DNA of 64,000 nt from a virus. The position numbers and the translations under genes are program-made. Below, piece after piece: positions 45,774 through 47,078 of this stretch (position 1 is the first letter of the stretch; every line of letters begins with the position of its first letter). The stretch spans positions 1 to 64,000 of the IMG/VR virus record IMGVR_UViG_3300036861_000507; one strand, 5' to 3'. The notes below the pieces were generated by a model. The model ran no database searches. It worked only from the letters and a program-made list of their open reading frames with translations, and was not told the DNA's origin.

Positions 45774-45845
45774 CTAAAAATTCGCCATTGCCGCGAACAG
45801 CACGATCCAGGCGATGGCCAAAACGCCGTACCAATCATCCAGCAT
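45774..45845 (-). CDS. Very small membrane peptide
   Basis: A 23-residue ORF (MLDDWYGVLAIAWIVLFAAM, then ANF) is almost all a single hydrophobic segment after a short charged start. It lies in the 400-nt gap between the 115-residue gene and tnpB. Coding status is uncertain; the gap otherwise holds the omega-RNA region and a short fragment ending KHTFAEIADVVAGWFAEAPH. Confidence 0.35.
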   Translation of the reverse strand: MLDDWYGVLAIAWIVLFAAMANF

Positions 45846-45903
45846 GGGGCGCCTCCGCGAACCAGCCCGCGACCACGTCGGCGATCTCGGCGAAGGTGTG
45901 CTT

Positions 45904-46050
45904 GTGACATGCTCCCCGGCCTTCAGACCGGAGCTTCCCAGTGGGGTTCTCCTGGCTCACAGCGGGGCTCCTTCTGCAAGCGTGCCCAGTCCGGCACGGG
46001 CGATGTTGAGTGCGGCGTTAACGTCGCGATCGTGGACCGCTCCGCACTCG
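45904..46050 (-). ncRNA. Candidate omega-RNA and IS605-type right end
   Basis: Immediately after the tnpB stop, the minus strand reads through a hairpin GCTCCGG...CCGGGGAGC and ends ATGTCAC at 45908-45904. This is the usual right-end form of IS605/TnpB elements, where the scaffold of the guide RNA overlaps the 3' end of tnpB. The next ~20 nt (45903-45884) would be the guide. The 5' limit given is an estimate. Confidence 0.65.
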
Positions 46051-47078
46051 CTGCACTCCCATCGCCTTACTCCAAGGTCTGCGATACCTTTCGGCCTCCC
46101 TTCCGGCAGTGCGCCGCAAGCGGAACAGACTTGGGAAGTGAAGCGCTCATCCACTTCCACCATCCTGCCCCCATGCCTCATGGCCTTGTAGGACAGCTGC
46201 GTGCGAAGCGTGGACCAGCCGGCATCGAGCACGCTCTTTGCCATCCTGGTCCGAGACAATCTGCTGCTCGACACGTTGCCCACGGCGATCAGGCCGTGGG
46301 CCAAGGCGATGCGAGCACTCGCCTTGTGAAGGTGATCCTTGCGTGCGTTGGCGATCTTCGTCGCAATGCTGCAGGCGAGCCGCTTCTTGTTGGCGCGCTG
46401 CGCCTTGCCGAGCTTCTCTTGCAGCCGACGATAGTGTTGCGGCGCGGCGATCTTCTCGCCCGTCGAGAGCGTGGCCAGCTCCTTCAGGCCGAGATCGATG
46501 CCAACCGCCGCTGCGCCCGATTTGGCGAACGCTTCGGCTGGGAACTCGACCGGCACGTTGATGTACCAGTGGCCCTTGGTATCGGCATTGAAGCTGCCCG
46601 CGTGGATCACGGAGCCCGCGGGAATGTCGCGCAGGTGCATCGGCTGATACTTGATGCCGCGGAACTTGAACGCTACACCATCGAACGTGACGTGCCCCTG
46701 ATTGAACGGCACCCAGCCCAGGGACTTGCGGCCGCGAAACCGTAGCCACGCCTTCTTGTGCTGTTTCCGCGAGCGGTCGTACTGCTGGCACACCTTCTGA
46801 ATCGTGTGGGCATGCAGGTCGAGCCACTTGCCGGCGCCAGCAGTGAGGCGCTGGAGGTCGACGGCCGTTAGCCACCTGCGCCCCGACTTGGCTGCCTTCT
46901 GCTGGGTCTCGTTGGCGTAGTTCCAGACATAGTGGACGGAGCGTGCCTGCCGGTTCAATTCGCGCGCATGCTTGTCGCGCAGCCTGAACTTGAGCACCAA
47001 CAGGATGGGCTCGCTATCCCCGCCCTGAAGGACGGGTCTTGCGCTCGCGAGTTCGTGGCTTGGTTCAAACAGGGTCAT
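45957..47078 (-). CDS. tnpB: TnpB (IS605 OrfB) RNA-guided nuclease, atypical active site
   Basis: This 373-residue protein has the TnpB N-terminal fold (VWNYANETQQ), RuvC-I GIDLGLK (Asp195), a zinc ribbon (TSQVCSACG, WECSECGA) and RuvC-III HDRDVNAA (Asp350). At the usual RuvC-II Glu position it has AVGNV (Gly267). A Glu lies at 311 (EVDERFTSQ), where the commoner sequence has Pro. This resembles TnpB groups with a relocated Glu. No tnpA is present; the start overlaps the upstream gene (ATGA), so the gene is embedded in the phage operon. Confidence 0.85.
   Translation of the reverse strand: MTLFEPSHELASARPVLQGGDSEPILLVLKFRLRDKHARELNRQARSVHYVWNYANETQQKAAKSGRRWLTAVDLQRLTAGAGKWLDLHAHTIQKVCQQYDRSRKQHKKAWLRFRGRKSLGWVPFNQGHVTFDGVAFKFRGIKYQPMHLRDIPAGSVIHAGSFNADTKGHWYINVPVEFPAEAFAKSGAAAVGIDLGLKELATLSTGEKIAAPQHYRRLQEKLGKAQRANKKRLACSIATKIANARKDHLHKASARIALAHGLIAVGNVSSSRLSRTRMAKSVLDAGWSTLRTQLSYKAMRHGGRMVEVDERFTSQVCSACGALPEGRPKGIADLGVRRWECSECGAVHDRDVNAALNIARAGLGTLAEGAPL

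What the first reader, a model, noticed from the sequence alone, without database searches (positions are those of the whole stretch)
45884..47078. Phage-embedded TnpB with relocated active-site Glu and a guide at its right end
TnpB here has no transposase partner, its ATG overlaps an upstream phage gene, and its right-end hairpin plus ATGTCAC is followed by a phage-derived sequence that would serve as guide. The RuvC-II Glu is replaced by Gly in AVGNV, and a Glu appears before TSQ. TnpB groups with relocated Glu have been described, while dead TnpB-like proteins (TldR) act as repressors. Which applies cannot be told from sequence.
Basis: partly seen in the sequence, partly recalled or inferred. 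Interest (0 to 1): 0.7.

Follow-up and report, generated by a model that had tools for sequence, protein, structure and literature searches.

The report
Phage TnpB that restarts interrupted genes
A phage carries a small RNA-guided DNA-cutting gene that has slipped into one of its operons with both of its ends written as protein-coding sequence, so that the interrupted neighbour gets a new start signal; the cutter's odd active site looks like a known working arrangement, not a dead one.

Summary
The finding is real. window:45957-47078 (-) encodes a 373-aa TnpB; ATGA overlap, right-end hairpin, TCAC and flank-derived guide are where stated. The 'missing' Glu is no lesion: Gly267 and the relocated Glu311 are invariant in 42 of 42 aligned relatives, with Asp195, Asp352 and four zinc Cys. 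This is the published 'Ealt' configuration, so a dead TldR repressor is unlikely. New here: the window belongs to a supported clade of 27 TnpBs (26 in virus records, 1 in a Nitratireductor genome) whose ends are threaded into phage operons. In 21 of 28 loci, window included, a start codon at the TnpB stop, behind a Shine-Dalgarno, opens a frame through the right-end/omega-RNA hairpin into the flank. TGAN lies exactly 16 nt before the left-end core in 9 of 13 loci, including a complete element with TnpA; often it is the phage gene's start (ATGAN). TAM plus guide rejoin in frame at 10 of 11 start-codon sites; the window is the exception. Best reading: a TnpA-less IS200/IS605-type element acting as an RNA-guided retention/homing nuclease, adapted to phage gene starts. 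Cleavage and homing are inferred; no empty site was found for the window.

The parts
45957..47078 (-). TnpB, 373 aa, Ealt RuvC (Asp195, Glu311, Asp352) with zinc ribbon
47074..47078 (-). ATGAC: TnpB ATG overlapping the stop of the upstream phage ORF; candidate TAM 1 (31 nt from the left-end core)
47064..47068 (-). TTGAA: candidate TAM 2 (21 nt from the left-end core); the one that gives an in-frame rejoined gene (post hoc)
   Evidence: for the distance; frame read from sequence
47018..47050 (-). left-end core TCGCGAGCGCAAG and hairpin CCCGTCCTTCAGGGCGGG, translated as part of the TnpB N-terminal extension (residues 1-21 disordered in the model)
45904..46103 (-). putative omega-RNA scaffold: 3' end of TnpB ORF plus right end; MFE z -3.41
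   Evidence: sub-threshold Rfam HgcC match 45892-46042
45968..45975 (-). AGAAGGAG, Shine-Dalgarno-like, 7 nt before GTG 45960
45835..45960 (-). GTG-started 41-codon ORF overlapping the TnpB stop and reading through the right end into the flank
45904..45939 (-). right-end hairpin and terminal TCAC
45884..45903 (-). predicted 20-nt guide (phage flank)
47075..47290 (-). upstream phage ORF (71 aa, no Pfam match) whose stop overlaps the TnpB start

Best explanation
A TnpB-only IS200/IS605-type element of a phage-enriched Ealt clade. TnpB is predicted to be a working RNA-guided nuclease; its omega-RNA comes from the 3' end of its own mRNA plus the right end, and the guide is the adjoining phage sequence, so it should cut the uninserted site (TGAN + guide) of related phages or copies and thereby keep or spread the element (retention/homing gene drive). 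The element is built so as not to break the operon: TnpB uses the start codon and stop-start coupling of the phage gene, and the right end carries a Shine-Dalgarno and a start codon overlapping the TnpB stop that re-start translation through the right-end hairpin into the interrupted gene. Shown by computation: triad conservation, clade, end anatomy, TGAN spacing, frame restoration in relatives, RNA-level constraint. Inferred: cleavage, omega-RNA, translation of the chimera, homing.
For: Triad, Gly267 and zinc Cys invariant in 42 of 42; fold match to ISDra2 TnpB 8h1j E 5.7e-21 and mimivirus Fanzor2 9b0l E 3.8e-15. Clade of 27 with support 99/96. Start codon at the TnpB stop in 26 of 28 clade loci; 21 of 28 read through the right end, all 21 with a Shine-Dalgarno; more distant cousins 5 of 12, 3 of 12, and 0 of those 3 with one. 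TGAN 16 nt before the left-end core: 7 rows, L014 and the complete TnpA-TnpB element L049 = 9 of 13. TAM+guide in frame in 10 of 11 start-codon sites, the window being the miss. GP46-like and GcrA-like homologues without the insertion start compatibly. Synonymous excess identity 0.227 in the 3' half against 0.085 in the 5' half of the last 600 nt, 0 of 10,000 permutations; fold z -3.41. Insertion-site recording and gene drive by TnpB are reported for plasmids (PMC11870625, abstract).
Against: No empty site of the window was found: 0 exact matches to 21 nt of guide flank in IMG/VR, so homing is untested. In the window ATGAC + guide is out of frame; TTGAA + guide is in frame but was chosen after the fact, and neither lies at the 16-nt spacing. 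The window's restarted frame ends after 22 flank codons while both other frames stay open longer (42 and 44 codons). No transcript or cleavage data. Right-end fold z-scores are modest (mean -1.28 in 27 loci). 2 of 29 records carry a Y1 transposase, so TnpA-driven movement is not excluded.
Confidence: 0.62

Rival explanations
1. An ordinary TnpB-only IS200/IS605-type passenger moved in trans by a host or co-resident TnpA; the operon-friendly ends are only the result of purifying selection against harmful insertions, without any homing role.
For: The clade member L049 is a complete TnpA-TnpB element with the same TAM and spacing; right ends keep a terminal TCAC, cousins TCAA; a Y1 transposase lies elsewhere in the L002 record.
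Against: 27 of 29 records have no Y1 transposase, though many are fragments; start codon plus Shine-Dalgarno is a standing feature of the right end, not of one site; nuclease residues stay invariant.
Confidence: 0.22
2. An exapted phage weapon: TnpB is kept for cutting competitor phages or host DNA, not for its own spread.
For: Clade enriched in virus records; the window phage has Erf-like and RecE-like genes near it.
Against: Guides differ between loci and equal the flank, as expected for a recorded insertion site; no second match of the window's guide in its record.
Confidence: 0.08
3. A nuclease-dead TldR-like repressor.
For: The canonical RuvC-II Glu is Gly; TldRs are known in prophages (PMC13418256, passages).
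Against: Ealt, both Asp and the zinc ribbon invariant in 42 of 42; the guide is the flank.
Confidence: 0.04
4. A decaying remnant with no present activity in this phage.
For: The window's left-end spacing is off (31 or 21 nt) and its rejoined frame is uncertain.
Against: Full-length ORF with all invariant residues; 3' RNA structure z -3.41.
Confidence: 0.04

Closest known systems
Ealt TnpBs with D-Phi-G RuvC-I (Yoon et al. 2023, PMC10711439; section 23 and passages read)
   Same: Glu six residues before the first CxxC, GIDLG RuvC-I, zinc ribbon
   Different: operon-threaded ends are not in what I read there; the gap between the two CxxC is 20 residues here (my count), their search pattern allowed 12-18
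IS200/IS605 elements such as ISDra2, and TnpB-only forms (structures 8h1j, 8exa)
   Same: fold, terminal hairpins, TGA-containing TAM (ISDra2 TTGAT, recalled), guide from the right flank
   Different: Glu relocated; no TnpA in the record; right end carries Shine-Dalgarno and start codon; left end translated
TnpB gene drive of insertion sequences in plasmids (PMC11870625, abstract)
   Same: guide would record the insertion site and cut uninserted copies
   Different: phage setting; TnpA not found; activity not tested here
TldR phage repressors (PMC13418256, passages)
   Same: TnpB family, in phage
   Different: TldR has an inactivated RuvC; here the Ealt triad is intact

Membership tests
TnpB (IS200/IS605 accessory nuclease family) | OrfB_IS605 and TNB/zinc-ribbon domains | tested here: met
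TnpB (IS200/IS605 accessory nuclease family) | TnpB fold | tested here: met
   model pLDDT 84.1, pTM 0.62; 8h1j TM 0.70 by query length
TnpB (IS200/IS605 accessory nuclease family) | RNA-guided DNA cleavage | not testable with these tools
   none
Ealt TnpB group | Glu six residues before first CxxC, none at the canonical place | tested here: met
   42 of 42; definition in PMC10711439
Ealt TnpB group | placement in the published Ealt tree | not tested
   the published sequences were not at hand
IS200/IS605 element with TnpA | adjacent Y1 transposase | tested here: not met
   0 in the window record; 2 of 29 records, adjacent only in L049
IS200/IS605-type ends | terminal hairpins, TAM at fixed spacing, guide from the right flank | tested here: inconclusive
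   met in the clade (9 of 13 at 16 nt), but in the window the spacing is 31 or 21 nt
TldR | inactivated RuvC | tested here: not met
   by sequence
Fanzor / pro-Fanzor | DPG RuvC-I motif with Ealt | tested here: not met
   RuvC-I reads GIDLG

The most novel reading that the evidence does not exclude
One stretch of RNA does four jobs: transposon end, omega-RNA scaffold, ribosome-binding site plus start codon, and coding sequence for a new N-terminus of the interrupted phage protein. TnpB bound to this part of its own mRNA, or cutting it, would then also set the translation of the next phage gene: an RNA-guided nuclease that doubles as a translational switch of the gene it sits in.
Probability: 0.18. 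Interest if true: 0.82.

Novelty: new variant of a known kind. Interest (0 to 1): 0.6.

Why it matters
It would show how an insertion sequence can enter phage operons at little cost, by using the start codon as its target motif and supplying a new one. It also offers a large family of phage-borne Ealt nucleases (501 relatives, of which 80 were kept) to test whether TnpB works as a homing nuclease without transposase, and what the moved RuvC glutamate does.

Tried and rejected
TldR reading: rejected on residue conservation. Boundary directly at GCGAGC: disfavoured because TGAN sits at a fixed 16 nt in 9 of 13 loci, including two where it is not a start codon (L024, L026) and the complete element L049; frame alone cannot separate the two boundaries. 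Empty site of the window: neighbours gave one distant relative and none, the guide flank none. Empty sites of relatives: only distant homologues, so no nucleotide-level empty site was seen. Flank protein of L008 in 199 genomes of its family: found only in its own genome. Rfam: HgcC matches lie at the right end in the window, L041, L069 and L026 (L013's lies on the other strand at its left end), all below the gathering score. The window against GenBank phages at DNA level: no match.

Rows dropped. Before A5, 58 sequences were tried and 42 kept: L038, L040 and L078 gave stop codons, and 13 others (L047, L052, L059, L066, L074, L076, L077, L080, L081, L085-L088) I left out to shorten the list, untested. 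L016 and L017 were left out of counts as copies of L015. L038 is counted among the 28 clade loci by identity but is not in the tree. L031's left-end match I read as chance (no hairpin). In one search no right end was recognised in two cousins (L063, L065). The labels 'embedded' and 'classical' were mine.

Literature: five searches for this coding design showed no paper describing it, judged from the listings; Altae-Tran et al. 2023 on TnpB diversity is not held and is recalled only.

Full report
What is there. The minus strand of 45957-47078 encodes a 373-aa TnpB with both expected Pfam domains over cut-off. Its ATG overlaps the stop of a 71-aa phage ORF (ATGA). The right end carries a hairpin and ends in TCAC at 45904, followed by 20 nt of phage sequence that would be the guide. 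The record is a 93,968-base virus contig without a Y1 transposase. Of ten window proteins scanned, matches to an integrase, a tail protein, an Erf-like annealing protein, a RecE-like exonuclease, an HNH protein and a repressor-like protein suggest a temperate phage.

The active site is not broken. Against the ISDra2 sequence, Gly267 stands at the canonical Glu. Across the window and 41 relatives, Asp195, Gly267, Glu311, Asp352 and the four zinc cysteines are invariant (alignment A5; rows dropped are listed under Tried and rejected). Glu311 lies six residues before the first CxxC, which is the published Ealt definition; that paper separates Ealt TnpBs with D-Phi-G from the DPG pro-Fanzors and Fanzors (PMC10711439, section 23 and passages). 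The model (pLDDT 84.1) matches ISDra2 TnpB, ISFba1 TnpB and mimivirus Fanzor2. Two GenBank phage relatives at about 40% identity, Salmonella phage LPSTLL and Acinetobacter phage HFM1, have the same residues. A dead repressor is thus unlikely; that the enzyme cuts is inference.

A phage-enriched clade. With the same six peptide patterns, 6 relatives were found in viral contigs and 1 in the genome collection. An alignment search gave 501 relatives in viral contigs, best 80 kept. In bacterial genomes 1 of 385 of one class and 4 of 398 of the phylum had a match at E <= 1e-60; three of those four are 47% identical to the window, in the range of the cousins. The genome samples are small and the viral search cannot see bacterial copies, so 'phage-enriched' is fair and 'phage-only' is not shown. 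In a tree of 42, 27 rows including the window form one side of a branch with support 99/96; 26 come from virus records and one, L008, from a Nitratireductor genome.

Ends that are read by ribosomes. Of 28 clade loci (the 27 plus L038), 26 have a start codon within a few bases of the TnpB stop; in 21 the frame reads through the right end, each time behind a Shine-Dalgarno. In 12 more distant cousins the numbers are 5, 3 and 0; there the stop mostly lies in the right-end hairpin. In relatives the new frame runs on into a phage gene, for example a GP46-like baseplate protein (L003), a GcrA-like protein (L013) and a DNA methyltransferase (L026); these names are mine from the sequences. In L019, L028, L031 and L032 TnpB itself reads past the right end to an ATGA; L025 and L035 have no start codon at the stop, L036 has one beyond the right end, and in L039 the restarted frame runs only 8 codons past it. 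On the left, in several loci (window, L002, L003, L004, L008, L013, L020, L024, L027) the TnpB frame runs upstream through the left-end region to a start codon; in others (L023, L026, L031, L068) it starts later. In the window model, residues 1-21 are disordered.

TAM. The left-end core GCGAGCGCAA or a near form is recognisable in 13 loci: 11 rows without L031, plus L015 and L049. TGAN lies exactly 16 nt upstream in L004, L008, L013, L020, L024, L026 and L027, L014 and L049: 9 of 13. L015 has 12, L022 11, L034 none, the window 31 and 21. The offset was picked after seeing the data; a TGA at one given place is a 1-in-64 event, so chance does not explain it even so. L049 is a complete TnpA-TnpB element with TTGAC. 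In most sites the TGAN is the start of the phage gene, ATGAC or ATGAG. Rejoining ATGAN/GTGAN with the right flank is in frame with the restarted ORF in 10 of 11 loci whose start codon is in the motif (L002, L003, L004, L008, L013, L014, L015, L020, L027, L068; the window is the miss), or 12 of 13 if L024 and L026 with motifs of my choice are counted. One third is expected by chance. Homologues without an insertion begin MTTGPFTDV or MQNFTDL against the rejoined MTYTDL, and a GcrA-like homologue begins at an ATGACC that overlaps a preceding TGA.

The window itself is the less tidy case. ATGAC plus guide gives MTSTPSP..., out of frame with the restarted ORF; TTGAA, 10 nt further in, gives MTLFE-KHTFAEIADVVAGWFAEAPHAG in frame, but I chose it because it fits. 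The restarted frame ends after 22 flank codons, overlapping the start of a further small ORF; the other two frames stay open longer. Which frame is the phage gene is not settled.

RNA. In the last 600 nt of 14 clade ORFs, identity of synonymous codons exceeds expectation by 0.227 in the 3' half against 0.085 in the 5' half (60 and 59 codon columns; 0 of 10,000 permutations). The 200 nt up to the right end fold with z -3.41 in the window; the right-end pieces alone have mean z -1.28 in 27 loci. Rfam HgcC matches sit at this place in the window and in 3 of 8 relatives searched, below the gathering score. This fits an omega-RNA made from the 3' end of the mRNA, as published for TnpB (PMC10278001, title and start of abstract seen in listings).

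How it most likely works. TnpB is translated by stop-start coupling from the upstream gene, binds the 3' end of its mRNA as omega-RNA, and cuts TGAN-plus-guide sites in copies without the element; repair from the inserted copy keeps or spreads it. A gene drive of this kind is reported for plasmids (PMC11870625, abstract). The right end re-starts the interrupted gene, so the phage pays little. The end anatomy is shown for the clade; the cutting, the omega-RNA, the chimeric protein and the homing are inferred.

Novelty. Ealt TnpBs, TnpB in phages, guides that record the insertion site, and TldR are known. A right end that is at once transposon end, guide scaffold and restart signal, with a TAM that coincides with start codons, I did not find described in the listings of five searches. 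I file it as a new variant of a known kind.

Noticed in passing
L049:2590-4110: A complete TnpA-TnpB element of the same clade in a virus contig, with TTGAC exactly 16 nt before the left-end core; it anchors the TAM.
   Followed up: partly
L102 (record of L002, 6801-7154): A Y1 transposase about 5 kb from the TnpB of L002, on the opposite strand.
   Followed up: no
L005 and L068: One 97,657-base virus contig carries two clade TnpBs at different sites.
   Followed up: no
window:45892-46042 (-); L041, L069, L026: Sub-threshold Rfam HgcC matches at TnpB right ends suggest that HgcC may be related to omega-RNAs.
   Followed up: partly
L014:2818-2890: Here the left end encodes a small ORF of its own that ends over the TnpB start region: a chain of overlapping frames.
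   Followed up: no
L009:2983-4074 (MN737551.1): TnpB of Salmonella phage LPSTLL is annotated as a putative head morphogenesis protein.
   Followed up: no
window:41931-44503 (-): RecE-like exonuclease and Erf-like annealing protein close to TnpB, possible recombination partners for homing.
   Followed up: no
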